Origin: Haloarcula japonica DSM 6131
GTDB lineage: Archaea; Halobacteriota; Halobacteria; Halobacteriales; Haloarculaceae
Reading direction: 5' to 3'
DNA length: 64,000 nt
Assembly: GCF_000336635.1 (NCBI RefSeq)
Contig: NZ_AOLY01000045.1
Location: 1-64,000, forward strand
The notes beneath the pieces are model-generated. The model was given only the letters and a program-made list of their open reading frames with translations, was not told the origin of the DNA and did no database searches. Position numbers and translations under genes: made by a program. Shown in pieces: positions 1,269 to 16,324 of the stretch. Within the stretch, counting starts at the first letter, position 1. Each line of letters opens with the position of its first letter.

Positions 1269-3711
1269 CGACGACGAGACAGCCAAAGCCGACGGCGGCA
1301 CGGCCTCGCAGTCAGAGACTGTCGAAGACAAGCGTTCCGAGGAACACCCGCTCGAATGGGACGAGCCAGAGAACAACAGTAAGGCCCCGGACGAGCGCGA
1401 CAGCGTCTCCCACCGGACGGAGAAGTACGACGACAGAAAGCTCGTGACCGGGCAGGCGAAGTACACCGCCGACTACGAGGAGCGGTATCCCGACCTCGCG
1501 TACGCGGCAGTCGTCCGAAGCGACATCCCACACGGCCGGGTGACCGATATCGACACGAGCGCTGCCGAGGCAATCGACGGCGTCGACGCGGTCCTGACAC
1601 CCGAATCCGACGCAGTGCCGGACACGAAATACACCAGCGCCGGACAGTCCTATCCCGAGCCGAGTCCGTGGGACATGCACGTACTGAACGAGCACGTCCG
1701 CTACATCGGCGACCCGATTGCCGCCGTCGCAGCCGAAGACCGGGCGACGGCGACCGCCGCCGTCGAGGCTATCGAGGTGGCCTACGAGGAGTACGACTAC
1801 GTCACCGACCCGGAGGACGCCTTCGACGAGGACGCGCCGCAGTTGTTCGAGGACAGCGAGGTCGAGAACGAGATCGTCGGCCACGACTACGGCCGGAACC
1901 GGATGGCCCACATCGGGGGCGAACTCGGCGACGTGGATGCAGCGCTCGACGGCGACACCCACGTACACGAAACCGAGTGGGAGACGATCCGCCAGTCCCA
2001 CGCCAACGTCGAGAAACACACCTCACTGGCCTACACAAACGAGGACGACCGCCACGTCCTCATCACCAGTACACAGGTGCCTAACCACACGCGTCGCCAA
2101 CTCGCCCACCTGTTCGACATTCCCATTCGGGACATCCGGGTGACGAAGCCGCGGGTCGGCGGCGGTTTCGGCGGGAAACAGGCGATGGTCGTCGAGCCGA
2201 TTCCGCTCGCGCTGTCGCTTGCGACCGACCGCCCGGTCTTGTACGAAGCCAGCCGCGAAGAGGAGTTCTACGCGATGCGTTCGCGCCATCCGATGAAGGT
2301 CAAAGCGAAGACGGCCGTGACCGCCGATGGTGATATCGAGGCCATTGACCTGTACGCCCTGTCGAACACCGGCGCGTACGGCAGCCACGGCATGACCGTC
2401 GCGGGCAACGTCGGCAGCAAGCCGATGCCGCTGTACTCGAAAGTTCCCAACGCCCGCTTCGAGGCCGATATCGTCCATACGAACACGCCCCAGACCGGGG
2501 CGATGCGGGGCTACGGCGCGCCACAGGGCACGCTCGCGCTGGAAGGCCATCTCGACGAGGTCGCCCGTGACATCGGTCTCGACCCTATCGAGTTCCGACG
2601 GCGACATCACATGGAGGTCGGCGACCTCGACGAGATCGCGGGGATGATGGGCGGCGAGGGAGCGAACCGTCGTATCCGCTCGTGTGGCCTCGACGAGTGC
2701 ATCGAGCGCGGAAAGGACGCTATCGGCTACGATGACCTCGAACAGCCCGACGAAGACCACCTGCACCGCGGCATCGGGATGGCGCTGTCCGCACAGGGGA
2801 CCGGCGTCGCAGGCGACGAACTCGGGGCCGCTCAGATAATGATGAACGAGGACGGGAGCTTCCACCTGCAGGTCGGTGGCGTCGACATCGGAACGGGGGC
2901 TGACACGGCGTTCCTCCAGATCGCCGCCGAGGTACTGGGCTGTGACGAGGACGACATAATCGTCAAATCCTCCGATACGGACGTGACGCCGTTCGACTAC
3001 GGCGCGTACGCCTCCTCGACGACCTACATCAGCGGGATGGCCGTCAAGAAGGCCGCAGAGGGCGCGAAAGCGCGGATTCTCGACTGGGGAGCGAAACTGC
3101 TCGACGAACCAGTCGAAGAACTGGAAACCGGCGACGGAACGGTGTACAGCGAGGGCAGCGGCGATTCGGTCACGCTGGAAGACATCGGCTACGAGGCCGC
3201 GTACGGCGACGACGAGCGCGAGCACATCTTGGGGAAGGGCACCCATTGTACCGAGGAGAGTCCCCCGCCGTTCGCCGCGCAGTTCGCCGACGTGACGGTC
3301 GACGAGACCACCGGCGAGTTCGAGGTACACAAGCTGGTCGTCGCGGTCGACTGCGGCGTCGTCATCAACCCCGGTATGGCCGAGGGCCAGATCGAGGGCG
3401 CGAACCACATGAGCTACGAGATGGCTGTCAGCGAGGGGATCACGCTGGATGACGAGGGACGGGCAGAGATAGCTGATTTCGACGAGTACGGACTGCCGTC
3501 GGCGACCGAGACGCCACCCATCGAGTCGATTCTGGTCGAGACCCACGAACCGACCGGTCCCTTCGGCGCGAAATCGGTCGCCGAAGTCCCGACCAACACG
3601 GTCCCGCCGGCACTGTCAAATGCCGTCCGGGACGCCGTCGGCGTCCGTATCCGGGAGATGCCGATTACCGCCGAGAAAATCAAGGCGAAGGTTGACGAGC
3701 GCAAGGACTGA
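1261..3711 (+). CDS. Molybdopterin-binding large subunit of xanthine dehydrogenase/CO dehydrogenase-family hydroxylase (first copy)
   Basis: The 816-residue catalytic subunit starts at the ATG inside the end of the small-subunit gene; the frame is open further upstream but that overlaps the neighbour. After an acidic leader of about 55 residues come the hammerhead domain and two cofactor-binding domains. Visible motifs are GGGFGGKQ near residue 300, MRGYGAPQG near 415, and GAKSVAEVPT, whose Glu775 matches the catalytic base of the family. Where xanthine oxidoreductases usually have KE in the first motif, this protein has KQ, so xanthine need not be the substrate. Neighbouring selD, yqeB and yqeC suggest a labile selenium ligand on molybdenum. 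Confidence 0.92.
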   Translation: MSNDDETAKADGGTASQSETVEDKRSEEHPLEWDEPENNSKAPDERDSVSHRTEKYDDRKLVTGQAKYTADYEERYPDLAYAAVVRSDIPHGRVTDIDTSAAEAIDGVDAVLTPESDAVPDTKYTSAGQSYPEPSPWDMHVLNEHVRYIGDPIAAVAAEDRATATAAVEAIEVAYEEYDYVTDPEDAFDEDAPQLFEDSEVENEIVGHDYGRNRMAHIGGELGDVDAALDGDTHVHETEWETIRQSHANVEKHTSLAYTNEDDRHVLITSTQVPNHTRRQLAHLFDIPIRDIRVTKPRVGGGFGGKQAMVVEPIPLALSLATDRPVLYEASREEEFYAMRSRHPMKVKAKTAVTADGDIEAIDLYALSNTGAYGSHGMTVAGNVGSKPMPLYSKVPNARFEADIVHTNTPQTGAMRGYGAPQGTLALEGHLDEVARDIGLDPIEFRRRHHMEVGDLDEIAGMMGGEGANRRIRSCGLDECIERGKDAIGYDDLEQPDEDHLHRGIGMALSAQGTGVAGDELGAAQIMMNEDGSFHLQVGGVDIGTGADTAFLQIAAEVLGCDEDDIIVKSSDTDVTPFDYGAYASSTTYISGMAVKKAAEGAKARILDWGAKLLDEPVEELETGDGTVYSEGSGDSVTLEDIGYEAAYGDDEREHILGKGTHCTEESPPPFAAQFADVTVDETTGEFEVHKLVVAVDCGVVINPGMAEGQIEGANHMSYEMAVSEGITLDDEGRAEIADFDEYGLPSATETPPIESILVETHEPTGPFGAKSVAEVPTNTVPPALSNAVRDAVGVRIREMPITAEKIKAKVDERKD

Positions 3712-3732
3712 GAAAGTCCTTCAGTTCGGTCG

Positions 3733-3738
3733 TTTTTT
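3733..3738 (+). terminator. T-run after first hydroxylase operon
   Basis: Six consecutive T residues occur 21 bases after the stop of the large subunit. Short T-runs of this kind act as intrinsic termination signals in archaea. Confidence 0.5.
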
Positions 3739-3871
3739 GTCCGCAGTTGAGACTACCGAAGCCACCTGTTGATTTATTTGTTCAAAAGTATGAACTACAG
3801 TAGCTGGTCGGTACAACCAGTATGTTCAGTATAACAGTATGTTTAATATACTCAGTACCTAACACTTGGGT

Positions 3872-4240
3872 ATGCCAATCAGCGCGGACCGGTTCGAGGA
3901 TATCCCGGACGACGGCGACACGCCCTCTCCGGAGACAAACGCAGGAGCGATTCTCGCGTTCCTCCGTGACAACCCCGAGAAGGCGTTTACCCGGAGCGAA
4001 ATCGCTGCTGAAACCGGTGTGAAGAAAGGCTCTGTCGGCCCAACACTCGTCCGACTGCGTGAACGGGGACGAGTCGACCACCGTGGGAACTACTGGCGCA
4101 TCAGTGATCACGAGGCAAGCGTCAATACCGCCACGGCCCACGCCACTGCCGCCATCGTCGCACGTGAGGCTGACGGTGAGACACCGTCCTACGAAGACTG
4201 GCAGGAGCACGCGGTCGACCCGCGTGACACCGATGAGTAA
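3872..4240 (+). CDS. Winged-helix DNA-binding protein, possible antitoxin/regulator of the following MazF-like gene
   Basis: This acidic protein of 122 residues has a MarR-like winged helix at about residues 25-78, with a recognition helix in KKGSVGPTLVRLRERG and a wing in GRVDHRGNYWRI. The ATG at 3872 is preferred over an in-frame TTG six bases earlier. Its stop overlaps the start of the next gene (ATGAGTAA, 8 bases), so the two are translationally coupled. The pair sits alone between two hydroxylase operons. It resembles a haloarchaeal toxin-antitoxin arrangement, but the protein could also regulate the hydroxylase genes. AT-rich sequence before it (3780-3865) offers a promoter. Confidence 0.75.
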   Translation: MPISADRFEDIPDDGDTPSPETNAGAILAFLRDNPEKAFTRSEIAAETGVKKGSVGPTLVRLRERGRVDHRGNYWRISDHEASVNTATAHATAAIVAREADGETPSYEDWQEHAVDPRDTDE

Positions 4241-4592
4241 CGGTCGGTACAGTTCCGGCGACGTGTTCTGGGCCCCGGACCCGTACAACCGGGGAAACAA
4301 TCCCCGCCCGTGGCTGGTCCTTACTGCAGACGCACTGCCGTTCAGCGGTGAGGAGTACATCTGTGCCGGACTGACACTCAGTGACCTCCAGGATAACATC
4401 GCTATCGGAGACAGTTGGATAGCCGGTGGCAACCCGGACAGAGAATCGTACTGTTCGCCCTGGGTACTCGCCACGGTCAAACACGATGCGGTAGCGAATC
4501 CACAGGGGCGGGTGGCCCCGGAGTTCACAGCTACGGTGACGAGACGAAGTTCCGAGTACATTACCGGCGACACCGACCGCGAGTCAGCCTGA
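4233..4592 (+). CDS. PemK/MazF-like protein, putative toxin
   Basis: The 119-residue product begins with GDVFWAPDP, followed by RPWLVLTAD and, later, WVLATVKHD and GRV. This is the order of conserved strands in the MazF/PemK fold, whose members are mostly mRNA-cutting endoribonucleases. The start is the ATG overlapping the end of the winged-helix gene; a longer reading into that gene is possible but unlikely. Toxin activity is inferred from fold and pairing; other haloarchaeal members may have lost it. The pair interrupts the hydroxylase locus and could be a later insertion. Confidence 0.65.
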   Translation: MSNGRYSSGDVFWAPDPYNRGNNPRPWLVLTADALPFSGEEYICAGLTLSDLQDNIAIGDSWIAGGNPDRESYCSPWVLATVKHDAVANPQGRVAPEFTATVTRRSSEYITGDTDRESA

Positions 4593-4624
4593 CCGACTCA
4601 GTCAGCTGAAGGACAGATAGAAGA

Positions 4625-4637
4625 CACACGGTGTTTG
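4625..4637 (+). promoter_or_regulatory. CACACGG-type motif before second hydroxylase operon
   Basis: CACACGGTGTTTG resembles the CACACGGAGTGTTT stretch before the DsrE gene (7808). A TATA-like CTATTTAC lies about 35 bases downstream, at 4670-4677. Confidence 0.3.
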
Positions 4638-4716
4638 TCGCGGTTTGTGACGGCACTCACCCGCGATAGCTATTTACCGTTCTGTTCGTCACGTGCCTGA
4701 CATAGCCAGCGAGCTG

Positions 4717-5295
4717 ATGAGCCATATGGAAATCGAACTGGAAATAAACGGTGTGGAACAGACGGTCGAAGCGTCGAAGTCCGATTCGCTTCTCGACGTC
4801 CTTCGACGGAACGGGTACACCGGCGCGAAGCGGGGGTGTGACACCGGCGCGTGCGGCTTCTGTACGGTACATGTCGACGGCGAGCCAGTGAAATCCTGCG
4901 TCAAACCAGTGACGAAAGCACGGGACGCATCCGTCGAAACAATCGAAGGTCTGGGCACACAGAACGACCTGCATCCGGTGCAACAGGCATTCGTCGACAA
5001 CACCGCGCTGCAGTGTGGGTTTTGTATTCCGGGGATGATTATGCGCTCGACGGCGCTACTGGTGGAGAATCCGGACCCGAGCGAACAGGAGGTCCGAGAA
5101 GCCCTGTCGGACAACCTCTGTCGGTGTACCGGTTACAAGAAAATCGTCGAAGCGGTGCTTGATGCCGCCGAGCGGATGGACAGCGGGACAGCGGTCGCCG
5201 CCGACGGTGGACAAACAGTCGATAGCGACGGTGGGGCCGCCACTGTAACCGAGTGTTCACGCACCGACTGCGGCTGCATGGAGGGCGATCAGTGA
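4717..5295 (+). CDS. [2Fe-2S] small subunit of molybdenum hydroxylase (second copy)
   Basis: The 192-residue paralogue of the gene at 690 has both clusters intact: GCDTGACGFC plus a distal cysteine for the plant-type cluster, and CGFC with CRCTGY for the helical one. It would shuttle electrons from the adjacent large subunit. The C-terminus again has an unusual cysteine-rich tail (CSRTDCGC). The ATG at 4717 was chosen; GTG at 4693 and ATG at 4726 are in frame. The gene ends in a 4-base overlap with the GTG of the large subunit. No FAD-binding middle subunit is encoded nearby. Confidence 0.92.
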   Translation: MSHMEIELEINGVEQTVEASKSDSLLDVLRRNGYTGAKRGCDTGACGFCTVHVDGEPVKSCVKPVTKARDASVETIEGLGTQNDLHPVQQAFVDNTALQCGFCIPGMIMRSTALLVENPDPSEQEVREALSDNLCRCTGYKKIVEAVLDAAERMDSGTAVAADGGQTVDSDGGAATVTECSRTDCGCMEGDQ

Positions 5296-7772
5296 GCGAT
5301 TCCGACCGGGTACGGGAGATGGACAGACGGCCCGACAGTACAGAGATAGATGAAGCGGACCCAGCCGAAGCCGACGAGGAGTCAGCGACGGGCGCGGCAC
5401 GCGAACCCGACCGGAAACCCGTATCCGAGCGCGACGCCATTACCGTGGACGAGGAGAAAGACGACGCACGGAAAATCGTGACCGGGCAAGCCCGCTACAC
5501 GGCGGATTACCGTGACCGGTTTCCGGACCTCGCCCACGGAAGGGTCGTTCGCAGCGATATCGCCCACGGCTACGTCGAATCGGTCGACACGAGCGCAGCC
5601 GAGGTGATGGATGGCGTCGACGCCGTCATCACGCCGTTCGACGACGTGGTTCCGGACAAACTGTACTCCAGTTCAGGCCAGTCTTACCCCGAGCCGAGCC
5701 CGTGGGATCTGAAGGTGTTGCGCGAACACGTCCGCTTCGTCGGTGACCCGGTCGCCGCTGTCGCAGCCGACGACGCGGAGACAGCCGACCGTGCTGCACG
5801 GAAAGTCGAGGTCAAGTACCGGGAACTCGACGCTGTGTTTGATCCCGAGGAGGCCTTCGACGAGGACGCGCCACAACTGTTCGAGGCTGATGACGTAGAA
5901 AACAAGCAGTCAGGCGCAGACTACAGCCGAAACCTCGAATCACACTTCGAGGGGGAACTCGGTGACGTGGACGCGGAATTTGAACAGGCGAGCGACGACG
6001 AGGAGCGACACGTCATCCAGACGGAGTGGGAAACGCCGTACCAGTCCCACTGCGTCCCGGAACCACACACGACCATCGCCTACACCGACGAGGACGACCG
6101 TCACACGTTCATCACGGCGACGCAGGTCCCCTTTCACACCCGCCGCCAGATAGCGCACCTGTTCGACGTGCCCATCCGCGACGTGCGGGTGAAGAAACCG
6201 CGAATCGGCGCTGGGTTCGGGTCGAAACAGGAGATGGCAATCGAGCCGATAACGTTCGCACTGCATCTGGCGGCCGACCGGCCGGTCAAACTGGAGATGA
6301 GCCGCCAGGAAGAGTTCACCGCGCTTCGCTTTCGCCACCCGATGCGGATGCAGATGCAGACCGTAGTGACGGACGACGGCGACATCGAGGCGATGGACCT
6401 CTACACGCTGTCGAACTCGGGGGCCTACGGCACCCACGGCATGACCGTCGCGAACAACGTCGGAACGAAGCCGCTCCCGCTCTACCCCCGCGTCCCGAAC
6501 GTCCGCTTTTCGGGAGATGTGGTACACACGAATCTCCCGATGGGGGCGGCCATGCGGGGGTACGGCGCACCACAGGGACATTTCGCCGTTGAAGCACACA
6601 TGGACGAGGTTGCCCGCCGCCTCGACCTCGACCCAATCGAGTTCCGCCTGCAGAACGCGGTCCGCGAGGGCGATCTCGACCGGAGCGTCGCGATTCTGAA
6701 AGACGGTGACCGGTTCACCCGGACGATTCGCTCGTGTGGCATCCGCGAATGCGTCGAACGCGGGAAAGAAGCCATCGGCTACGACGACCCCGAACAGCCC
6801 GATAAAGACCACCGCAAGCGCGGGGTCGGAATGGCGCTCATTGCCCAGGGAAGTGGTGTCGCGGGGAAGGAACTCGGCGCGGCACAGGTACAGATGAACG
6901 AGGACGGGAGCTTCCACCTACAGGTCGGCGGCGTCGACACCGGGACGGGCGCGGACACGATGTTCTCCCAGATCGCCGCCGAGGTGCTGGGCTGCACTCC
7001 CGAAGATATCGTCGTCATCGCCGCCGACACCGATCTGACGCCGTTCGACTACGGCGCATACGCCTCCTCGACAACGTACATCAGCGGTCGCGCGGTAAAG
7101 AAGGCCGCCGAGGATGCCAAAGAGCGGCTACTGGAGTGGGGGTCAAAACTGCTCGACGAACCGCCGGAAGCGCTCGACACCGGCGACGGCGACGTGTACA
7201 GCGAGCGGACCGGCAACTGTGTATCGCTGGAGGAAATCGGCTATGAGGCCACGTACGGCGACGACAAGCGCGAACACATCCTCGGGGACGGCAACCACTC
7301 GACCGACGAGAGCCCGCCGCCCTACGGCGCGCAGTTCGTCGACGTGACTGTCGATACGGAGACCGGCGAGTACGAACTCAACAAGCTGGTGTTTGCGGCC
7401 GACTGCGGCGTCGCGATAAATCCCGCGCTGGTCGAAGGCCAGATAGAGGGCGGCGAGCACATGAGCCTCGAATACGCCACGAGCGGCGACCTCACCTTCG
7501 ATGAGGACGGGAACCCGGAGGTCCTGGGCTTTCGCCAGTACGGGATGCCGCGGACGACGGACCACCCCGAAATGGAGACAATTCTGGTCGAAACACACGA
7601 ACCCACGGGTCCGTTCGGCGCGAAGTCTATCGCGGAACTTCCGACGAACGGCGTGCCGCCGGCGCTCTCGAACGCCATCCGCGACGCCGTCGGCGTTCGG
7701 CTGACCGAGTTGCCGTTCACCGCGGAGGACCTGAAGACGGCACTTGACGAGCAGTCTGCTGACGAAGGATAG
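5292..7772 (+). CDS. Molybdopterin-binding large subunit of molybdenum hydroxylase (second copy)
   Basis: This 826-residue protein closely parallels the one at 1261, so the two operons are a duplication that has diverged. It has an acidic leader, GAGFGSKQ near residue 306, MRGYGAPQG near 421, and GAKSIAELPT with the probable catalytic Glu782. As in the first copy, glutamine follows the lysine where xanthine oxidoreductases usually have glutamate. The GTG start overlaps the small-subunit stop by 4 bases; an ATG at 5319 is an alternative. It probably oxidises an N-heterocycle or aldehyde, with electrons leaving through the small subunit. Confidence 0.92.
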   Translation: MSDSDRVREMDRRPDSTEIDEADPAEADEESATGAAREPDRKPVSERDAITVDEEKDDARKIVTGQARYTADYRDRFPDLAHGRVVRSDIAHGYVESVDTSAAEVMDGVDAVITPFDDVVPDKLYSSSGQSYPEPSPWDLKVLREHVRFVGDPVAAVAADDAETADRAARKVEVKYRELDAVFDPEEAFDEDAPQLFEADDVENKQSGADYSRNLESHFEGELGDVDAEFEQASDDEERHVIQTEWETPYQSHCVPEPHTTIAYTDEDDRHTFITATQVPFHTRRQIAHLFDVPIRDVRVKKPRIGAGFGSKQEMAIEPITFALHLAADRPVKLEMSRQEEFTALRFRHPMRMQMQTVVTDDGDIEAMDLYTLSNSGAYGTHGMTVANNVGTKPLPLYPRVPNVRFSGDVVHTNLPMGAAMRGYGAPQGHFAVEAHMDEVARRLDLDPIEFRLQNAVREGDLDRSVAILKDGDRFTRTIRSCGIRECVERGKEAIGYDDPEQPDKDHRKRGVGMALIAQGSGVAGKELGAAQVQMNEDGSFHLQVGGVDTGTGADTMFSQIAAEVLGCTPEDIVVIAADTDLTPFDYGAYASSTTYISGRAVKKAAEDAKERLLEWGSKLLDEPPEALDTGDGDVYSERTGNCVSLEEIGYEATYGDDKREHILGDGNHSTDESPPPYGAQFVDVTVDTETGEYELNKLVFAADCGVAINPALVEGQIEGGEHMSLEYATSGDLTFDEDGNPEVLGFRQYGMPRTTDHPEMETILVETHEPTGPFGAKSIAELPTNGVPPALSNAIRDAVGVRLTELPFTAEDLKTALDEQSADEG

Positions 7773-7873: not shown

Positions 7874-8245
7874 ATGGCGTACATCGGGTTTCTGCTGACA
7901 GGCGGTCCCTTCGACAGCGAACGGTGGCGTACCGCCTACGAGCTGGGACGGGCGGCGCTGGATCAGGGCCACGAGGTGAGCTACTTCCACTACCTCGATG
8001 GCGCGCTCGTCCCCGTTGCGGACCAGACCCTACCCGGCTGTTCGGACAGCGGGCTGTACGACGAGATGCCGACCGAGAAGTTCCAGGAACTCATCGCGGA
8101 CGGGGCAGAAGTCATCTGCTGTGGGCTCTGTGTCGACGCACGCGGGATCGACGCATCAGCCGACTACCCCGAAGGCGTCGAAGTCGGGCTGCTCCCGGAC
8201 CTTGCGGACATCATCGGCGAGGCCGACCGGGTGGTCTCGCTATGA
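7874..8245 (+). CDS. DsrE/TusD-like chalcogen-relay protein
   Basis: The 123-residue protein has the DsrE fold pattern: IGFLLTGGPFDSERWRTA at the N-terminus and EVICCGLCVDARGI with the cysteines expected at the persulfide-carrying site. In sulfur metabolism DsrE works with DsrF and DsrH, receiving sulfur from TusA. The three genes follow one another here with minimal gaps (4-base overlap with the next) and a TusA-like gene lies at 11469. Placement in the selenium/molybdenum locus suggests transfer of sulfur or selenium to the molybdenum cofactor. That role is inference. Confidence 0.82.
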   Translation: MAYIGFLLTGGPFDSERWRTAYELGRAALDQGHEVSYFHYLDGALVPVADQTLPGCSDSGLYDEMPTEKFQELIADGAEVICCGLCVDARGIDASADYPEGVEVGLLPDLADIIGEADRVVSL

Positions 8246-8595
8246 AACGAGATGTCGTCGTACTGCTCACCCGCGCGCCGTACGGCCGAGTCCACATCCC
8301 AGAGGGGCTGCGAGCGGCCCGTGGCATCGCGGCCGGTTTCGACATGCACGACGTGACCGTGATATTCACCCAAGACGGCGTGTACGGCGCTCGGGAGGCC
8401 GTCGACCGCGAGGCACTCAATATGACCGGGCACGTCGCCGACCTTGAGGAACAGGACGGACAGATGGTCGCGGACGAGGCGGCGATGGCCGAGCGCGGCG
8501 TTGACGAGACCGAAATCGCCGACGACGTGATGGTCTGGTCGGACGACCGCGTCACCGCCCGCATCCGCAACGCCGATAAGACACTGGATTTCTGA
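8242..8595 (+). CDS. DsrF/TusC-like relay subunit
   Basis: This 117-residue protein of the DsrE superfamily begins KRDVVVLLTRAPYGR and carries the FTQDGVYGAREAVD motif shared by DsrF and DsrH types. The ATG overlaps the preceding stop by 4 bases and the next gene starts 2 bases after its stop, so the three are one operon. By analogy it would form a complex with the DsrE- and DsrH-like neighbours. No cysteine is visible in it, so it is probably structural rather than a carrier. Confidence 0.78.
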   Translation: MKRDVVVLLTRAPYGRVHIPEGLRAARGIAAGFDMHDVTVIFTQDGVYGAREAVDREALNMTGHVADLEEQDGQMVADEAAMAERGVDETEIADDVMVWSDDRVTARIRNADKTLDF

Positions 8596-8597
8596 CA

Positions 8598-8843
8598 ATG
8601 CTGTATCTCATCGACAAACCGATGGCAGAAATCGGACTGCGTACTGCCGCCGGGGACCCCGAGGCACACGTCGTCCTGATTCAGGACGGCGTCTACCTCA
8701 CACCGGATATCGACGCACCCGTCTCAGCAGTCGCGAGAGACGTGGACGTGCGTGGTGTCTCGCTACCGCCGGATATCGACCGGATATCCTACCACGACGT
8801 GGTCGAAACCATCGTCGAGCAGGAGGTCAGGAGCTTCGTATGA
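8598..8843 (+). CDS. DsrH/TusB-like relay subunit
   Basis: The small 81-residue protein begins LYLIDKPMAEIGLR and has VVLIQDGVYL, the typical DsrH/TusB strand and loop. DsrH proteins usually carry one cysteine near the C-terminus; none is present here, which is a notable difference. The stop overlaps the start of the XdhC-YqeB gene by 4 bases, linking the relay set with cofactor maturation in one operon. Confidence 0.75.
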   Translation: MLYLIDKPMAEIGLRTAAGDPEAHVVLIQDGVYLTPDIDAPVSAVARDVDVRGVSLPPDIDRISYHDVVETIVEQEVRSFV

Positions 8844-10420
8844 GCCTGTTCGAACGACTCGACGAACTGGCTGCCCAGGGAGAGCCGGCGGCGCTCCTGA
8901 CTATCGTCCGCAAGGACGGTAGTGCGCCGCGGGACGTAGGAGACAAAATGGTCGTCACAAGCGACGAGGAGCATGGAACTATTGGCGGTGGCACGGTCGA
9001 GCATCTCGCCGTACAGGACGCCCGGTCGGTGCTCGCCGGGGCTGACGACCCCGGCGTCCGGACGTACGAACTCGAACGCGGCGGCAACACGGGCATGGTC
9101 TGTGGCGGCGAAATGGACGTGTTCATCGACCGCGTTCGCGGGCAAGCACGACTCTACATCGCCGGGGGCGGCCACATCAGCGTCGAGCTGGCCCCGCTGG
9201 CGGAGCGGCTGGGCTACGCCGTCACCGTGGTCGACGACCGCGAAGCATACGCCGACCCGGCGAAGTTCCCCGACGAGACGGACGTGATTCACGGTGACTA
9301 CGGCGATGTGCTCAGTGATTTGGAGATGGGAACCGAGACTGCCGTGGCCGTCGCAACGCGAAGCGGGACGTTCGACCAAGACGCTGTCGCTGCGGCGCTA
9401 GACGGCGAGGCTGGCTACGTCGGACTCGTCGCCAGCGAGACGAAAGCCGACCATGTCCTCGACTCACTCGCCAAATCAGGCTATGGGCATCGGGAACTCA
9501 GCCGAGTCCGGACGCCCGTCGGGCTCGACCTCGGCGGGAGCGGGCCGGCCGTCGTCGCGCTCTCGATTCTGTCCGAGGTCACCATGGACCGTCACGACGC
9601 CACCGGTGAGCGGGCGACACGGCTGGACCTCGATGACTTGGTCATCGTCCGCGGCGGCGGCGACCTCGGAAGCGGCGTTGTCTATCGCCTCCAGCAGGCC
9701 GACTTCCCAGTCATCGTCACCGAAGTAGAACAGCCAACAGTGGTCCGGCGGGCAGTCGCTTTCGGGTCTTCACTGTACGAAGACGAGGTGACGGTCGAGG
9801 GAGTCACGGGCCGAGCAGCAGCGGACATCGACGAGGCGCTCGAACTACTCGCCGACGATGTCGTTCCGGTACTCGTCGACCCAGAGGCAGCTGTTGCTGA
9901 CGACCTCGACGCCGCGATCCTCGTCGACGCGATCATGGCGAAGGGGGCGTTCGACACCGGCACGCGCCGGGGGGACGCCGACGTAGTAGTCGGGATGGGG
10001 CCCGGTTTCGAGGCCGGCGAAGACGTGGACGCTGTCGTCGAGACTGACCGCGGGCACGAGCTCGGCCGCGTTCTCTACGAGGGGGCAGCGAGCGAGTACG
10101 ACGGCGAACCCGGCGAGCGTCGCGGCTACACCCACGAGCGGGTGCTTCGTGCCCCGGCCGATGGTGAGTGGACACCGACAGTCGCCATCGGCGATAGTGT
10201 CACAGCCGGCGACGTTGTCGGCACTGTCGGCGACCAGCCGGTCGAAACCGAGATAGACGGGCTGGTTCGCGGCCTAGTTCACGGCGGCCTCGGTGTCAGC
10301 GAGGGTACCAAACTCGGCGATGTCGACCCCCGTGGTGAGTCTGTCGACCCAACGAAGATCTCCGACAAAGCGCTGTGTCTCGGCGGTGGCGTGCTGGAGG
10401 CAGTACTCCGGCTGCGGTAG
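8840..10420 (+). CDS. XdhC-YqeB fusion, molybdenum hydroxylase maturation protein
   Basis: This 526-residue protein joins two families. Residues 1 to about 250 match XdhC/CoxI proteins, which bind sulfurated molybdenum cofactor and insert it into hydroxylases; visible are GSAPRDVGDKM, GTIGGGTVEH, GNTGMVCGGEMDV and a Rossmann-like LYIAGGGHISVELAPLAERL. Residues from about 258 match the YqeB family of selenium-dependent molybdenum hydroxylase systems: VIVRGGGDLGSGVVYRL, TEVEQPTVVRRAVAF and VTVEGVTGRA. The two are often separate genes, so the fusion suggests they act at one step. It is last in the dsrEFH operon and ends 17 bases before selD, which converges from the other strand. Confidence 0.88.
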   Translation: MSLFERLDELAAQGEPAALLTIVRKDGSAPRDVGDKMVVTSDEEHGTIGGGTVEHLAVQDARSVLAGADDPGVRTYELERGGNTGMVCGGEMDVFIDRVRGQARLYIAGGGHISVELAPLAERLGYAVTVVDDREAYADPAKFPDETDVIHGDYGDVLSDLEMGTETAVAVATRSGTFDQDAVAAALDGEAGYVGLVASETKADHVLDSLAKSGYGHRELSRVRTPVGLDLGGSGPAVVALSILSEVTMDRHDATGERATRLDLDDLVIVRGGGDLGSGVVYRLQQADFPVIVTEVEQPTVVRRAVAFGSSLYEDEVTVEGVTGRAAADIDEALELLADDVVPVLVDPEAAVADDLDAAILVDAIMAKGAFDTGTRRGDADVVVGMGPGFEAGEDVDAVVETDRGHELGRVLYEGAASEYDGEPGERRGYTHERVLRAPADGEWTPTVAIGDSVTAGDVVGTVGDQPVETEIDGLVRGLVHGGLGVSEGTKLGDVDPRGESVDPTKISDKALCLGGGVLEAVLRLR

Positions 10421-10437
10421 AAGGCTCCTAATCGACG

Positions 10438-11466
10438 TTAGCGGCTGACTTCTTCAATAGTCGGGTCCACAAGCGAGACGCCGCGTCCGGCCGTAACACG
10501 GCCGACAGCTCGATAGAACACGTCGGCGTCGTCGAGCGCCGATTCGACGGCGTCAGTCGCAGTCGGTGGGACGGAGACGAACAGGCCGCCGCTGGTCTCC
10601 GCGCTCTCACCCACAGTCAGCCCGTATCCGAATAGTGCCGAGAGGGCGGGTGTTCCTGCGATGACCGGGAGGTGTGTCAGTTCGATACCGACGGTCGAGC
10701 GGTCGGCCACCACGCGGCTCTGTCCGACGAGGCCGAAGCCGGTAATGTCGGTCGCCGCGGTCGCGTATTCGCGACAAGCGAGCGCAGCGTCCCGGTTCGG
10801 GGTCGTCATCCACTCGATGGCATCCGACTCGATTTGGTCGAGTGGGCGGTCAGTAGCATCGGTGACCGTCTCGACGAACTGGTCGTCGGTCACGCGGGTC
10901 GCACCCATAGCCGGCTGTGTCCCGAGCGGTTTGGTCAGGTAGAGCCGGTCGCCAGGGCTGGCACCCTGCGAGGTGAGCAGAGCTTCGGGGCGTGCTATCG
11001 CTGAGATAGCTCCTCCGGCGAACGGCCACGGGCTCATGATGGTGTGGCCACCGGCGATAACGCCGTCCATTGCGTCCAGCGCGTCGGCCATGCCGGCGAG
11101 AATCGGCGCTGCGCTCTCGGTTAGTTCTCGTGGTAGGCCGAGGACGACCAGACAGTCAACGTTCTCGACCGCGCCCGTGGCGAACGCATCGCTGGCGGCG
11201 TTACAGGCGGCGATACGGCCGAAATCGTACGGATCGTCGACGATGGGCGTGAAGAAATCCACCGTCGAAACCAGCGCGAGGTCGTCGGTAAGTTTTCGCC
11301 CAGCGGCGTCCTCGCCGATGCCGAACAGCAACGCGTCGTTCTCACCGGTGAGGCCGGCGTCAGCGAGCAGCGAATCGAGGTCGCTCTGACCGACTTTGCA
11401 GGAACAGCCGTGGAGTTCCGTGTACTCCGTCAGGCGCGTCGTTTCGTCGTCACCGTCGGTTCCCAC
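10438..11466 (-). CDS. selD: Selenophosphate synthetase (selenide, water dikinase)
   Basis: The 342-residue protein has the SelD/PurM-like fold. Near the N-terminus, HGCSCKVGQ holds the catalytic Cys and Lys; further on come GIGEDAAG, VSTVDFFTPIVDDPY and VIAGGHTI, and TDITGFGLVGQ in the C-terminal half. It makes selenophosphate from selenide and ATP. The GTG at 11466 is chosen because it starts just after the TusA-like stop; the longer frame would run into that gene. No selA, selB or tRNA 2-selenouridine synthase gene is visible here, in line with the known orphan SelD of Haloarcula and a role in supplying selenium to the hydroxylases. Confidence 0.93.
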   Translation of the reverse strand: MGTDGDDETTRLTEYTELHGCSCKVGQSDLDSLLADAGLTGENDALLFGIGEDAAGRKLTDDLALVSTVDFFTPIVDDPYDFGRIAACNAASDAFATGAVENVDCLVVLGLPRELTESAAPILAGMADALDAMDGVIAGGHTIMSPWPFAGGAISAIARPEALLTSQGASPGDRLYLTKPLGTQPAMGATRVTDDQFVETVTDATDRPLDQIESDAIEWMTTPNRDAALACREYATAATDITGFGLVGQSRVVADRSTVGIELTHLPVIAGTPALSALFGYGLTVGESAETSGGLFVSVPPTATDAVESALDDADVFYRAVGRVTAGRGVSLVDPTIEEVSR

Positions 11467-11468
11467 AC

Positions 11469-11717
11469 TCAGGCCTCCGATAGCGACGCCATCTCGGTCA
11501 CCCGGAGTTCGAGTTCGAACTCGCCGGACTCGCCAGCGGTCTCCGCGGTCGTCACATCGATGCCGTGGGTCGTACACATCCGACGGAGGTTCTCCTCGGC
11601 CGGTGGGTAATCACCACGGACGACGAGCGTCTCGCCGGTGTCGAGGTCAGAAAGCGCCTGGCGGACAATGAGCGCCGGCCGGGGACAGATTTCACCACGA
11701 ACGTCTACGCGGGCCAT
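11469..11717 (-). CDS. TusA/SirA-like sulfur (selenium) carrier
   Basis: This 82-residue protein carries the TusA signature VRGEICPRPALIVRQAL, with CPxP supplying the persulfide cysteine. TusA-like proteins (YedF in selenium loci) carry activated sulfur or selenium to partners. It is the first gene of a two-gene minus-strand operon with selD, which starts 2 bases after its stop. Together with DsrEFH on the other strand it completes a relay set. Confidence 0.87.
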   Translation of the reverse strand: MARVDVRGEICPRPALIVRQALSDLDTGETLVVRGDYPPAEENLRRMCTTHGIDVTTAETAGESGEFELELRVTEMASLSEA

Positions 11718-11811: not shown

Positions 11812-12597
11812 ATGCATCTGGCTGCTGCGCTGGACTTAGGTTCCAGCGCTGCTATCGCCTTTGTCGGGGCCGGCGGGAAGAAAACCGCGATGGGACAGCT
11901 GACGGGCGAAGGAACCGACGAGGGGTACGACGTGGGCTACACGACGACGACAGCGATGCCGCCACCGCCCCACCTGCCCCTGACGCTCACAGGCCCAGAA
12001 GAGTGGCGAACCGACCTCGAAGCACATGACCCGCCGATTGCCCTCGCTCGCGAGGAGGTAGCCGATCCGGCGCGAGTCGACCGGAAGGTTCGCGGGTTCG
12101 AGGCGAGTGTGGTGGACCAGCTATCCGAGGCCGGACTGTTCGACTGGCTGCTCGTCAAGGCTGACGGGGCACGCAGACGGGAGTTCAAAGCGCCTGGCGA
12201 TGGGGAACCAGTCGTCCCGAGTACCGCGACCCACGTCGTCCCGGTCGCTTCGGTCGCCGCCGTCAGTGAAGTGCTGACGACGGACGTGGTTCATCGACCG
12301 GAGCGGGTAACGGATATCACCGACATCGATATTGGCGACACGATCACCGCGGCGGCTGTCGGAACAGTGCTCACACATCCCGACGGTGGCCTCCGAAACG
12401 CGCCAGCCGAGGCCTCTGTGATACCGTTAGTCAACAAAGCGGATACCGAACCACAGCGTCGTATCGCTACAGACGTACTCGCACACGCACTTTCACAGAC
12501 AGAGCGGTGTTCTCGGGGCGTCATTACGTCGTTCGAGTCAGATGTCTGTGAAGTGGTCTCAGCGGCGGATATAAAGGAGGAAGGGCGCGATGACTGA
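11812..12597 (+). CDS. yqeC: YqeC-type selenium cofactor biosynthesis protein
   Basis: The 261-residue product fits the YqeC family, a marker of selenium-dependent molybdenum hydroxylase loci. It has a P-loop-like GAGGKKT at residues 19-25, KADGARRREFKAP near 120 and VNKAD near 210. YqeC is thought to help make or insert the labile selenium cofactor; the chemistry is not settled. The ATG at 11812 follows a TATA element at the leaderless distance. It is followed by the MocA-type gene with a 42-base gap, probably in one transcript. Confidence 0.87.
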   Translation: MHLAAALDLGSSAAIAFVGAGGKKTAMGQLTGEGTDEGYDVGYTTTTAMPPPPHLPLTLTGPEEWRTDLEAHDPPIALAREEVADPARVDRKVRGFEASVVDQLSEAGLFDWLLVKADGARRREFKAPGDGEPVVPSTATHVVPVASVAAVSEVLTTDVVHRPERVTDITDIDIGDTITAAAVGTVLTHPDGGLRNAPAEASVIPLVNKADTEPQRRIATDVLAHALSQTERCSRGVITSFESDVCEVVSAADIKEEGRDD

Positions 12598-12639: not shown

Positions 12640-13257
12640 ATGAACAGCCAGCACCGGAGTAGAGTCGGCGGCGTCATCCTCGCCGCTGGGAGGAGCGCAC
12701 GGTACGAGTCGGGTAACAAACTGCTGGCGACTATCGACGGGGAGGCGGTCGTCCGACAGGTGGCCGAAACCGCCTGTGAGTCATCGCTATCGGACGTTGT
12801 CGCTGTCCTCGGATACGAAAACGTGGCCGTGGCTGAGGCGCTGGACGGCCTATCTCTTTCGTTTCGCCATAACGACGATTACGCGGCCGGCCAGAGTACG
12901 TCAGTTCGACACGGCGTCGAGTTCGCCCATTCGGCCGACTGGGACGCCACCCTGTTCCTGCTTGGCGATATGCCGTTCGTACGCGCCGAAACCGTCGAGG
13001 AGCTTCTCGAAACGTACCGGACAGGAACGGCAACTATTGTCGTTCCTGAGTACGAGGCGACGCGGGGAAATCCGGTGCTTTTCGACAGGTGCCACTTCGA
13101 TGCACTCGCCTCGGTCTCCGGCGACCGCGGCGGGCGAGAGATTATCGAGACCGCCGAGAAAACAGCGTTCGTTGAAGTTGGGGACCCTGGAGTCCACTGG
13201 GATATCGACACCGAGGCTAACCTCGCCGAATTCGCGGACCGCCGCGACGGCCTGTGA
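12640..13257 (+). CDS. mocA: MocA-type molybdenum cofactor nucleotidyltransferase
   Basis: This 205-residue protein of the MobA/MocA-like NTP-transferase family has the nucleotide-binding start GGVILAAGRSARY (residues 10-22), a lysine in NKLLA, and GDMPF at 109-113. MocA attaches CMP to molybdopterin, giving the cytosine dinucleotide cofactor used by many hydroxylases of this family; a MobA-like GTP preference cannot be excluded from sequence alone. Its place between yqeC and ridA fits cofactor supply to the two hydroxylases. Confidence 0.87.
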   Translation: MNSQHRSRVGGVILAAGRSARYESGNKLLATIDGEAVVRQVAETACESSLSDVVAVLGYENVAVAEALDGLSLSFRHNDDYAAGQSTSVRHGVEFAHSADWDATLFLLGDMPFVRAETVEELLETYRTGTATIVVPEYEATRGNPVLFDRCHFDALASVSGDRGGREIIETAEKTAFVEVGDPGVHWDIDTEANLAEFADRRDGL

Positions 13258-13289: not shown

Positions 13290-13670
13290 ATGAAACGGAC
13301 CATCAGCACGACCGATGCCCCCGATGCGGTCGGCGCGTACAGTCAGGCAACGACAGACGGATCGCTCGTGTTCACCGCGGGCCAGATTCCGATGACGTCC
13401 GACGGCGATCTGCTGGACGACGAACCGATAGCGACGCAGGCGGAACAGGCGCTATCGAACGTCGAAGCGGTACTGGCAGCCGAGGGACTGGAGATGAGTG
13501 ACGTGCTGAAGGTGACCGTCTTTCTCGACGATATCGGCGATTTCGAGGCTATGAACGATACGTATGCCAGCTTCTTCGACGAAGCGCCACCGGCCCGAAG
13601 CGCAGTCGAGGTCGCAAATCTGCCAAAGGGTGTCGGCGTCGAAATCGAAGCTATCGCGACGAGCGATTGA
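13290..13670 (+). CDS. ridA: RidA-family enamine/imine deaminase
   Basis: The 126-residue RidA/YjgF protein shows AVGAYSQAT near the N-terminus, FTAGQIP, the VTVFLDD strand and PARSAVEVANLPKGVGVEIEA with the family arginine at the trimer interface. RidA proteins hydrolyse reactive enamines and imines; members also occur in pyrimidine and purine breakdown clusters. Its position between cofactor genes and the ABC importer suggests removal of reactive intermediates of N-heterocycle catabolism, but general housekeeping is possible. Confidence 0.9.
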   Translation: MKRTISTTDAPDAVGAYSQATTDGSLVFTAGQIPMTSDGDLLDDEPIATQAEQALSNVEAVLAAEGLEMSDVLKVTVFLDDIGDFEAMNDTYASFFDEAPPARSAVEVANLPKGVGVEIEAIATSD

Positions 13671-13698
13671 GACAGACAGACACGCACTGCTGTTGTGG

Positions 13699-13719
13699 GC
13701 CACATAGCCGGGATGTGGC
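13699..13719. promoter_or_regulatory. Palindrome GCCACAT-7-ATGTGGC before phnD-like gene
   Basis: Perfect 7-base arms are spaced by 7 bases and end just before an AACTTTCAAG TATA-like element (13726-13735), which lies 30 bases before the ATG at 13760. Bound protein would touch or block the basal promoter. The arms match those at 514-529 and 17757-17772. Confidence 0.55.
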
Positions 13720-13759
13720 GCACGCAACTTTCAAGACCGGCGACTCGCATCACAGCGTC

Positions 13760-14635
13760 ATGCGACCCACGAGGCGTGAATTTCTGGGTACAGCGGCAGC
13801 GCTTTCGCTGTCGGGCTGTCTCGGAGGGACGGCGGCACCGACGCTGACGGTCGGCGTCGTGCCCGACGTGGACCCGGATACCGCCATCGAACAGAACACC
13901 GAACTCGCGACGTATCTGGCGACAGAACTCGACGTCGAGACCGAGTTACGTACAGCGGCTGACTACGCCGGGATGGTCCAGGCAATGGGGGCGGGACAGG
14001 TCGACATCGCCTACTACGGCGGTGTGTCGTACATTCTGGCCCATCGTCGAGCGGATGCAAAGCCAGTCGTCGTCGGGTCACGGAACGGACAGACGGAGTG
14101 GCACTCCGCGTTCATCGCCCCGTCAGACAGTGACCTGACAGAGATGACGGACATGGTCGAAGCCGCAAGCGAGACCGAACTGGTGTTCGGCGACCCGCTC
14201 TCGACCAGCGGAACCGTGATGCCGACGTACCACCTGCAGACGGAGTACAATCTACATACCCACGCGTTCGAACAGGTCACACACGTCGGTGCCCACGACG
14301 CAACGGCGGAGACAGTCGGTCAGACCAACGGTGTCGTCGGGGCGCTGAACGCCCGCATCTATGACAGACTACTCGCAGACGACGCCGTTGAAGGGGTGCG
14401 AGAGCTATGGCGGACTCCCGGTTTCCCGGATTACCCGTGGGCCGTCGCCCCGTCGCTGGAGGCGACGACGGCGGACGCTGTTCAGACGGCGTTTACGACC
14501 CTCGACTCGAAAGGGCGAACGGATATTCTCGACCAGCAGGCCGTCGACCAGTACGTCGAGGTGAGCCACGACGCGTTCACATCGCTGGAAACGGCCGTCG
14601 AGATGGCTGGCATCGAACAGGGAGACGACGGGTGA
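13760..14635 (+). CDS. phnD: PhnD-family substrate-binding lipoprotein of ABC importer
   Basis: This 291-residue extracellular binding protein starts with a Tat lipoprotein signal: RRE at residues 5-7 and SLSGC with Cys20 as the lipid-anchoring residue. The rest matches the PhnD/SsuA/transferrin-like fold: [31 protein letters not shown] and [17 protein letters not shown]. PhnD-type proteins bind phosphonate, phosphite or related oxyanions. With no C-P lyase genes in this locus, a selenium, sulfur or other oxyanion or an organic ligand is as likely. The start codon at 13760 fits the TATA element and signal peptide. Confidence 0.88.
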
Positions 14636-15453
14636 AAAACGAGCACGCAGCGCGTCCAGAGGGGAAACAGACAGGCCACGGGCTCCTTTTCGATGGTGTC
14701 ACCAAGGGGTTCGGCGGGAAAGTTGCGGTGCGGGATGTCTCGCTCAGCCTGAATGCCGGTGAACGGGTCGCCGTCATCGGGCCCTCAGGAGCCGGCAAGA
14801 CCACGCTTCTCAGGCTGGCAGCCGGCGCATTACGGCCCGATGCAGGAGCGGTGACGTTCAACGGGAGCAGTGTTACGGGTTCGACCACGACGCTTGCGTA
14901 TCAGGGAGAGACGCTCGTGGACCGGCGGACGGCACTGTCGAACGTCCTCACTGGGCGCATCGGAGCCCTGTCCTGGCTCCGTGGCTTCATCGAGCCACTG
15001 CTTCCCCGGCACCCAGAGCCAGCCCTCGAACGACTCGGTGCCGTCGGGCTGGTCGAACGGGCCGATGTCCCCGTGAAATCGTTGAGCGCTGGCGAACGCC
15101 AGCGGGTCGCCTTCGCACGGGCCCTCATGCAGGATACCGCGGTCGTGTTGGCCGACGAGCCGACAGCGAATCTTGACCCCAGCTCCCGCCGGAACGTTAT
15201 CGACGTGCTCGACGCCGCCCTCAACGGGGAGCTGCTGATCACCGTCCTCCACGACGTTGACCTGGCACTGAAGCACTTCGACCGGATCGTCGGCATGGCT
15301 GACGGCCTGGTCAGGTTCGATACGCCCGCGCCGGCGGTGACCGACGATCAACTGGATTCCCTCTTTGCAGCGGGCGCATCCACGCCCGATACCGACGCCG
15401 AGGGAACAGGGACGGAGAAAGAGAGTGAGGCTCCGGTTCCGCGGTATGTCTGA
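14632..15453 (+). CDS. phnC: PhnC-type ABC transporter ATP-binding protein
   Basis: This 273-residue ATPase has Walker [10 protein letters not shown] (residues 50-58), the signature [15 protein letters not shown] and Walker B VVLADEP followed by TANLDP. It powers the importer formed with the neighbouring binding and permease proteins. The GTG at 14632 overlaps the phnD-like stop by 4 bases, and its own stop overlaps the permease start by 8 bases, so the three are coupled. The 30 or so C-terminal residues after the core are acidic and likely disordered. Confidence 0.9.
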
Positions 15454-16324
15454 GAGATATGGCGGTTCAGACGCTACCCAGCGTGCTTCCTCCGGACCAT
15501 CGAAACGCCAACTCACGACACTACTCGGCGGCTGTGTCATCCTGGCGGCCGCGGCGTGGATCGCCGAAGTAGACCCGCTGGCCCTGTTCACCGCTGGAGC
15601 GCGCGAGCAGATGGTCGCGTTCGTCGCCGAGGGCGTGCCGCCGGAGACTGGCCGTGAATACCTGCTGGGACGAAGCCTTCGTGAGGGCCTGCTGTGGGCT
15701 GTCGTCGAAACCCTGGCCATCAGCGTTGTCGGAACCACGCTCGCCGTCGCGCTCGCCGTCCCACTCGGTCTGACCAGTGCCGCCACCGTCACCCACCGCG
15801 GCCCGCTGTACAGGAACGCCTCAGCCGGCCGTATCGCCGTCGGACGCGGGCTCTATCACACCAGCCGAACCGTGCTCAGCTTCCTGCGCTCCGTTCCCGG
15901 CATCGTCTGGGGGTTCCTGTTCGTTACCGCTATCGGCCTCGGCCCGTTTGCGGGTGTGCTCGCGCTGGCGGTTCACAACGCCGGTGTCTTGGGAAAGCTG
16001 TACGCCGACTTCCTTGAAGACACGGACCCGATGACGATAGAGGCGGTTGCCGGGAGCGGCGCGACACGTCTGCAGGCAGTCTGTCACGGGATGGTCCCGC
16101 AGGTGACGCCTACAATCGCCTCGTACACGCTGTACCGCTGGGAGTGTACTATTCGGTCGGCCGCCATTTTCGGGTTCGTGGGTGCGGGCGGCGTCGGGTA
16201 CTATCTCGTCATCACCATTCAGCGGTTGCAGTACGGGAAACTCTCGACAGCTATCCTCGCCGTGTTTGCGCTGGTCGTCACGAGCGACTGGCTCGGCTCT
16301 CGGTTGCGGACGCGGCTCGGCTGA
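15446..16324 (+). CDS. phnE: PhnE-type ABC transporter permease
   Basis: The 292-residue membrane protein has about six predicted helices and the binding-protein-dependent permease EAA loop ([13 protein letters not shown], about residues 195-207), which docks on the ATPase. It follows the ATPase with an 8-base overlap. In PhnE fashion it starts with a long cytoplasmic end, one helix, a periplasmic loop and then the conserved permease core. The substrate is set by the binding protein and is unknown. It converges with the amidohydrolase; 26 bases separate them. Confidence 0.88.

What the first reader, a model, noticed from the sequence alone, without database searches (positions are those of the whole stretch)
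7874..11717. TusA-like plus DsrE-DsrF-DsrH relay embedded in a selenium/molybdenum locus
DsrEFH is coupled by overlaps to the XdhC-YqeB gene, and a TusA-like gene is coupled to selD. In sulfur oxidisers and in tRNA thiolation, TusA hands sulfur to DsrEFH/TusBCD. Here there is no sulfite reductase or thiouridylase nearby. The layout suggests a relay handing activated selenium or sulfur to the molybdenum cofactor, a use I do not know to be described. The DsrF- and DsrH-like proteins lack cysteine, so only DsrE could carry the atom.
Basis: partly seen in the sequence, partly recalled or inferred. Interest (0 to 1): 0.72.

Follow-up and report, generated by a model that had tools for sequence, protein, structure and literature searches.

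The report
Haloarchaeal TusA–DsrEFH module for selenium-molybdenum enzymes
In salt-loving archaea, a small set of proteins that elsewhere passes sulfur atoms between proteins always occurs with the genes that put selenium into molybdenum enzymes, which makes it a good candidate for the unknown selenium-handling step; no biochemistry has been done.

Summary
dsrE-dsrF-dsrH are real genes that overlap xdhC-yqeB, and a tusA-like gene lies 2 nt upstream of selD. Of 391 Halobacteria genomes, 30 carry YqeB. The same 30 carry SelD, this DsrE and this DsrH; the other 361 carry none of them, apart from one decayed dsrE remnant. The block dsrE-F-H-xdhC/yqeB-selD-tusA-yqeC keeps its gene order in all 30 (9 genera), while the adjacent hydroxylase, mocA and transporter genes vary. 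The genome has no DsrC/TusE, MnmA, SelU or SelB, and no other DsrE-family gene, so the known sulfur-relay uses have no acceptor. DsrF and DsrH have no conserved cysteine. DsrE has an invariant CGLC motif, and the last Cys aligns with TusD-Cys78. "Undescribed" needs qualifying: bacterial YedF is a TusA-DsrE fusion with a CGxC motif, encoded near selD and yqeB, and long proposed to act in selenium metabolism (function unknown, reported absent in archaea). The haloarchaeal set looks like a split, three-subunit counterpart. A dedicated chalcogen carrier for SDMH maturation is likely. Whether it carries Se or S, and whether it feeds SelD or the cofactor, is unproven.

The parts
7874..8245 (+). dsrE (123 aa), TusD/YchN/YedF-C-like subunit with C82-C83-G-L-C86
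   Evidence: Pfam DsrE 73.7 bits; CGLC in 38/38 distinct haloarchaeal loci; hhalign to YedF C-domain, YchN, TusD
8242..8595 (+). dsrF (117 aa), TusC-like subunit, no conserved Cys; overlaps dsrE by 4 nt
   Evidence: TIGR03010 34.9 bits, below its 94.15 cut-off; PDB 2hy5_B E=7e-7
8598..8843 (+). dsrH (81 aa), TusB-like subunit without Cys
   Evidence: Pfam DsrH 25.0 bits over cut-off 24.4; PDB TM0979 E=4e-7
8840..10420 (+). xdhC-yqeB fusion (526 aa); overlaps dsrH by 4 nt; C88 (XdhC) and C513 (YqeB) invariant
   Evidence: TIGR03309 370 bits (cut-off 220), Pfam XdhC_C 121 bits
10438..11466 (-). selD (342 aa from GTG 11466) with HGCSCK motif
   Evidence: TIGR00476 272 bits, cut-off 125; both Cys of GCSCK invariant in 30/30
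11469..11717 (-). tusA-like (82 aa), CPRP, second invariant Cys48; ends 2 nt before selD
   Evidence: Pfam TusA 61.6 bits; best NCBIfam TIGR03527 (YedF N-half) 35.6 bits, below cut-off
11812..12597 (+). yqeC
   Evidence: TIGR03172 193 bits, cut-off 73
12640..13257 (+). mocA/ygfJ-like nucleotidyltransferase (accessory; found in 24 of 29 other loci)
   Evidence: TIGR03310 147 bits, below cut-off 186
4693..5295 (+). molybdenum hydroxylase [2Fe-2S] subunit (client context)
   Evidence: Pfam Fer2_2, NCBIfam
5253..7772 (+). molybdenum hydroxylase Mo-binding subunit (client context; listed ORF, true start probably further in)
   Evidence: MoCoBD_1/2, XdhA-like 658 bits
690..3711 (+). second molybdenum hydroxylase pair (690-1268 Fe-S subunit, 1183-3711 Mo subunit as listed ORFs)

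Best explanation
TusA plus DsrEFH is a dedicated chalcogen (selenium, possibly sulfur) carrier module for maturation of selenium-dependent molybdenum hydroxylases in haloarchaea. TusA (CPxP Cys11) and DsrE (CGLC, C83/C86) hold the atom as a Cys per-chalcogenide; the DsrF and DsrH subunits, without conserved cysteine, are scaffold of a TusBCD-type complex. The dithiol of DsrE allows release as selenide/sulfide or a protected hand-over. The likely clients are SelD on the TusA side and molybdenum cofactor held by XdhC-YqeB on the DsrE side, so the module could stand where NifS4 stands for R. capsulatus XdhC. Shown here: the genes, perfect co-occurrence, conserved order and overlaps, invariant cysteines, absence of the known acceptors. 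Inferred: complex formation, the atom carried, direction and acceptors.
For: YqeB, SelD, DsrE and DsrH occur in the same 30 of 391 Halobacteria genomes and no others (general DsrH family); positives are scattered (15 of 24 sampled genomes of the window's own genus; 9 of 86 genera), which suggests that the block was gained or lost repeatedly as a unit. The core block is conserved in 30/30, including 5 loci without the adjacent upstream hydroxylase and 5 without mocA. In 8 further distinct haloarchaeal loci DsrEFH is present, once moved to a new place in the same locus (L104). A genome without YqeB and SelD (G130) retains only a 34-codon dsrE stub near a hydroxylase gene. DsrE is the best conserved protein of the block outside the genus (83.6% mean identity against 73.0% XdhC-YqeB, 67.7% SelD). 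CGLC is invariant in 38 distinct loci while neighbouring C82 is not. No DsrC/TusE, MnmA over cut-off, SelU, SelB over cut-off or further DsrE-family gene in the genome. Bacterial SDMH genomes carry YedF, with the same two domains and CGTC, over cut-off in 17/24; 21 of 62 bacterial yqeB loci have it within 10 kb. Literature: TusA persulfidates DsrE only, not DsrF or DsrH (PMC13293266); XdhC-bound cofactor receives sulfur before insertion (PMC2997495); tusA-tusD transcripts of Methanococcus maripaludis rise 4.5-4.6 log2 on selenium depletion (PMC11097638); a yqeB deletion and selD mutants give the same purine phenotype in C. difficile (PMC11448449).
Against: No biochemistry. Co-occurrence of genes that sit in one block is not independent evidence for each. 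Haloarchaea here have only one selenium trait, so a role upstream of SelD and one at the cofactor cannot be separated. YedF tracks SelD across selenium traits in bacteria (PMC5322559, PMC2432076), which favours a general selenium role rather than cofactor insertion. 7 of 24 bacterial SDMH genomes have no YedF over cut-off, so the function is replaceable or not always needed.
Confidence: 0.62

Rival explanations
1. The module works before SelD: TusA-DsrE captures, reduces or hands over selenide (as might be the case for YedF in bacteria), and its coupling to xdhC-yqeB is only co-regulation.
For: tusA lies 2 nt from selD and stays next to it in all 30 loci; YedF tracks SelD across selenium traits (PMC5322559, PMC2432076); CGxC looks like a redox motif; M. 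maripaludis, a Sec user, induces tusAD on selenium depletion (PMC11097638).
Against: dsrEFH itself is locked by 4-nt overlaps to xdhC-yqeB, not to selD, in 29/29 loci; bacterial SelD works without DsrEFH.
Confidence: 0.3
2. It carries sulfur, not selenium: DsrEFH supplies the sulfido ligand (or dithiolene sulfur) of the molybdenum cofactor, and selenium follows by another route.
For: All characterised DsrEFH/TusBCD complexes I know move sulfur (PMC3397948, PMC13293266); TusA supplies sulfur for Moco in E. coli (PMC5372717); XdhC-bound Moco is sulfurated by NifS4 (PMC2997495); no cysteine desulfurase among the window proteins annotated.
Against: Exact match with SelD and YqeB, and no DsrE/DsrH orthologue in 361 haloarchaea without them. 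Whether those have sulfurated hydroxylases was not tested here.
Confidence: 0.2
3. Ordinary sulfur relay of the TusBCD or dissimilatory Dsr type that happens to be encoded here.
For: Subunit-by-subunit homology to TusD/TusC/TusB and DsrE/F/H.
Against: No DsrC/TusE acceptor, no MnmA over cut-off in the genome; all three subunits below the TusBCD equivalog cut-offs; present only with SDMH genes.
Confidence: 0.05
4. A passenger: the genes hitch-hike in a mobile block and have a function unrelated to selenium.
For: Some loci are on replicons titled plasmids (CP040679, CP085337).
Against: Hydroxylase, mocA and transporter genes vary in the same block while dsrEFH never drops out; DsrE is the most conserved protein; overlapping reading frames are conserved.
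Confidence: 0.05

Closest known systems
YedF (TIGR03527), bacterial selenium-associated TusA-DsrE fusion
   Same: Same two domains, CPxP in the TusA part, CGxC in the DsrE part (hhalign places CGLC on CGTC), encoded within 10 kb of yqeB in 21 of 62 bacterial yqeB loci, same biological setting
   Different: Here TusA and DsrE are separate genes, DsrE comes with DsrF and DsrH, and scores are far below the YedF cut-off (35.6 and 11.5 against 110 bits); YedF was reported absent in archaea (PMC5322559)
DsrEFH of sulfur oxidisers (2HY5) and E. coli TusBCD (2D1P)
   Same: Three adjacent genes, each subunit most similar to its own counterpart; active Cys of TusD/DsrE aligned with C86
   Different: Second Cys in a CGxC motif, no Cys in DsrH (A. 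vinosum DsrH-Cys20 is needed in vivo, PMC3397948), no DsrC/TusE in the genome, linked to SDMH genes
DsrEFH type II of cable bacteria (PMC13293266)
   Same: A divergent DsrEFH in which TusA loads only DsrE
   Different: Type II goes with DsrAB and DsrC in sulfate reducers; the haloarchaeal set was not mentioned in the passages I read and its genome has no DsrC
YchN of E. coli (1JX7)
   Same: CKTC aligns with CGLC over a nearly full-length match
   Different: Single protein, no TusA/SelD/YqeB linkage known to me
SDMH / third selenium trait (YqeB, YqeC, SelD; PMC2276186, PMC2432076)
   Same: The H. marismortui pNG700 locus described there is the same kind of locus; its tusA-like gene was listed as a distant SirA-like
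   Different: dsrEFH was not named as part of it (term search of both papers)

Membership tests
SDMH selenium-cofactor system | SelD, YqeB and YqeC over curated cut-offs, near molybdenum hydroxylases | tested here: met
SDMH selenium-cofactor system | SelD not explained by Sec or selenouridine | tested here: met
   SelU no match, SelB only below cut-off
SDMH selenium-cofactor system | Labile selenium in the hydroxylase | not testable with these tools
   needs 75Se labelling or mass spectrometry
DsrEFH/TusBCD complex family (broad) | Three adjacent genes homologous to D/E, C/F and B/H subunits | tested here: met
DsrEFH/TusBCD complex family (broad) | Active-site Cys at DsrE/TusD-78 | tested here: met
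   C86 aligned with the TusD NICVAA cysteine (moderate-probability alignment); invariant in 38 loci
DsrEFH/TusBCD complex family (broad) | alpha2beta2gamma2 hexamer | not testable with these tools
   only single chains could be modelled, with low confidence
Canonical TusBCD (TIGR03012/03010/03011 equivalogs) | Scores over curated cut-offs | tested here: not met
   21.1/89.25, 34.9/94.15, 25.8/49.2 bits
Canonical DsrEFH of sulfur oxidation | DsrH-Cys20 | tested here: not met
   no Cys column in the alignment of 30 DsrH
Canonical DsrEFH/TusBCD | DsrC/TusE acceptor in the genome | tested here: not met
   PF04358 no match
YedF (TIGR03527) | TusA and DsrE domains in one polypeptide, over 110 bits | tested here: not met
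   separate genes; 35.6 and 11.5 bits
YedF (TIGR03527) | CPxP and CGxC motifs | tested here: met
YedF (TIGR03527) | Genomic linkage to SelD | tested here: met
   30/30 haloarchaeal loci

The most novel reading that the evidence does not exclude
TusA-DsrEFH is the missing selenium-insertion relay of the third selenium trait: activated selenium passes as a perselenide over the DsrE CGLC dithiol onto molybdenum cofactor held by XdhC-YqeB. To my knowledge this would be the first DsrEFH complex that carries selenium and serves a metal cofactor.
Probability: 0.3. Interest if true: 0.85.

Novelty: new variant of a known kind. Interest (0 to 1): 0.66.

Why it matters
How selenium reaches the molybdenum hydroxylases is the least understood selenium pathway; even whether it comes from selenophosphate is open (PMC11448449). 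A compact, perfectly co-inherited carrier module with one obvious active site gives named genes and two named cysteines to test. The bacterial counterpart (YedF) was flagged as a selenium gene in 2008 and still had no assigned function in the 2015 survey, and the archaeal form splits its two domains into separate proteins, one tied to selD and the other to xdhC-yqeB, which could show which domain talks to which partner.

Tried and rejected
AlphaFold of DsrE with 19 orthologues gave a low-confidence model (pLDDT 52); the fold search still ranked DsrE 2hy5_A, YchN and TusD first, but I rest nothing on it beyond family membership. The haloarchaeal DsrE profile did not by itself pick up the YedF DsrE domain in bacterial loci, so the absence of DsrEFH near 62 bacterial yqeB genes has limited sensitivity; the stronger statement is the Pfam DsrH search, 0 of 24 bacterial SDMH genomes with E. 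coli and Thermotoga controls positive. The Pfam DsrH model is weak on this subfamily (it finds only 11 of the SDMH haloarchaea at E<=0.01, plus one likely chance hit at 18.8 bits in G275), so the A3 profile is the main DsrH evidence. Weak DsrE-family hits at 20-32 bits in about 128 other haloarchaea are other family members or parts of longer frames and were not counted. I considered 'ordinary sulfur relay' and rejected it for lack of acceptors. YqeB hits at 19-23 bits were treated as noise. No tree was built to count gains and losses.

Full report
Observation. The stretch 7874-11717 holds dsrE (7874-8245), dsrF (8242-8595), dsrH (8598-8843) and xdhC-yqeB (8840-10420) on the plus strand, and selD and tusA (11469-11717) on the minus strand; yqeC and a mocA-like gene follow. 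Family searches confirm each name. SelD most likely starts at GTG 11466, 2 nt after the tusA stop codon, not at the longer 11577 start (read). Molybdenum hydroxylase genes lie upstream at 690-7772.

Co-occurrence. Among 391 Halobacteria genomes, YqeB (TIGR03309) is over its cut-off in 30, with a clear gap (335 bits and up against 23). A DsrE orthologue (64-100% identity, at least 175 bits) is in the same 30, adjacent to YqeB; the best hit elsewhere is a 34-residue stub and then 32 bits. SelD over cut-off is in the same 30, and a DsrH profile hits the same 30 and nothing else. A search with the general Pfam DsrH family gave no credible hit in a genome without SDMH genes. I compared the four handle lists by eye and they are identical. 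The 30 fall in 9 genera of 5 families, and the sampled genomes of the window's own genus are mixed (15 of 24), which suggests that the set has come and gone repeatedly, as a unit.

Gene order. In 29 loci taken out of those genomes plus the window, dsrE-dsrF-dsrH-xdhC/yqeB, then selD and tusA on the other strand, then yqeC, are in the same order and orientation; in L085 transporter genes are inserted between tusA and yqeC. The neighbouring hydroxylase is missing next to the block in five loci, and mocA in five. The overlaps dsrE/dsrF and dsrH/xdhC-yqeB are exactly 4 nt in 29 of 29. A separate collection gave 17 haloarchaeal contigs with DsrEFH, 8 of them from genomes not in the first set; in one (L104, Halodesulfurarchaeum) dsrEFH has moved behind yqeC but stays in the locus. 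Genome G130 lacks YqeB and SelD over cut-off but keeps the first 34 codons of dsrE beside a hydroxylase gene, which looks like a decayed locus.

Cysteines. In 30 orthologues DsrE C82, C83 and C86 are invariant, DsrH has no Cys, DsrF no conserved one; TusA keeps C11 (CPxP) and C48, SelD its GCSCK motif, XdhC C88, YqeB C513. In two more distant loci C82 is Val or Ser while CGLC stays (L104, L105), so the conserved unit is CGLC. Profile alignment places this CGLC on the CGTC of bacterial YedF and the CKTC of YchN, and C86 on the TusD active-site Cys. DsrF pairs with TusC and DsrH with TusB in the same test. XdhC C88 probably corresponds to the highly conserved XdhC cysteine (Cys82) discussed in PMC2997495; I did not align the two.

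Absent partners. The genome's only PF02635 proteins are DsrE and DsrF of this locus. There is no DsrC/TusE, no SelU, no SelB over cut-off and no MnmA over cut-off. Known acceptors of DsrEFH/TusBCD are therefore missing, and SDMH maturation is the only established use left for SelD.

Bacterial comparison. 62 bacterial yqeB loci were fetched. None showed DsrE, DsrF or DsrH with the haloarchaeal profiles (limited sensitivity), and 24 of their genomes have no Pfam DsrH. Instead 21 loci carry YedF within 10 kb of yqeB, and 17 of 24 genomes carry YedF over cut-off. YedF was flagged as selenium-related in 2008 and 2015, with function unknown and absence in archaea stated (PMC2276186, PMC2432076, PMC5322559). 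The most economical reading is that TusA plus DsrEFH is the haloarchaeal counterpart of YedF. Shared descent of the DsrE domains within the DsrE family is likely, but a direct split or fusion is not shown: TusA and DsrE score well below the YedF cut-off.

Mechanism. TusA-to-DsrE transfer with only DsrE loaded is established for other DsrEFH complexes (PMC13293266, PMC3397948), and XdhC-bound cofactor is sulfurated by NifS4 before insertion in R. capsulatus (PMC2997495). Selenium-responsive expression of a tusA-tusD pair is reported in an archaeon whose authors had no explanation (PMC11097638). Deleting yqeB mimics selD mutants in C. difficile (PMC11448449). Together with the layout this supports a dedicated chalcogen carrier for SDMH maturation. 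What the carrier holds (Se or S), the direction, and whether DsrE touches XdhC-YqeB are inference.

Novelty and verdict. Not a new family: a divergent DsrEFH with a YedF-like dithiol, in a new setting. I found no paper in the held library that describes DsrEFH in the haloarchaeal SDMH locus (term searches only, subscription journals mostly missing). Interest lies in a clean, testable candidate for an open step.

Noticed in passing
window 13667-16324 (+): PhnD/PhnC/PhnE-like ABC transporter; the binding protein scores 166 bits to the putative selenate transporter family TIGR04553 (cut-off 250), fitting the selenate-transport proposal for H. marismortui pNG7234.
   Followed up: partly
window 16351-17685 (-): Amidohydrolase, 708 bits to a 5'-deoxyadenosine deaminase model (cut-off 522), also similar to the selenium-linked SsnA family below cut-off; next to it a NAD synthase (18136-18984). 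Both are kept in most close relatives.
   Followed up: no
window 690-7772 (+): Two molybdenum hydroxylase pairs in tandem, each with a [2Fe-2S] and a Mo subunit; whether both receive selenium is unknown.
   Followed up: no
L090 (G130 contig 102) 2367-2468 (-): Decayed dsrE: the first 34 codons at 85% identity, in a genome without SelD or YqeB over cut-off, beside a molybdenum hydroxylase gene (64% identical).
   Followed up: partly
L079, L089, L106, L107: A second tusA-like gene further downstream in the same locus.
   Followed up: no
window 22021-22668 (-): RdfA (rod-determining factor A) homologue, 145 bits.
   Followed up: no
window 23214-26378 (+): 1054-aa response regulator-GAF-BAT-HTH_10 regulator of the bacterioopsin-activator type.
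   Followed up: no
window 30501-62000: Surface polysaccharide region: glycosyltransferases, flippase, three sulfatase-family proteins, carbohydrate-binding modules.
   Followed up: no
literature PMC11097638: M. maripaludis raises tusA-tusD transcripts 4.5-4.6 log2 on selenium depletion; the authors related it to tRNA thiolation. A selenium role in line with YedF would be another reading.
   Followed up: partly
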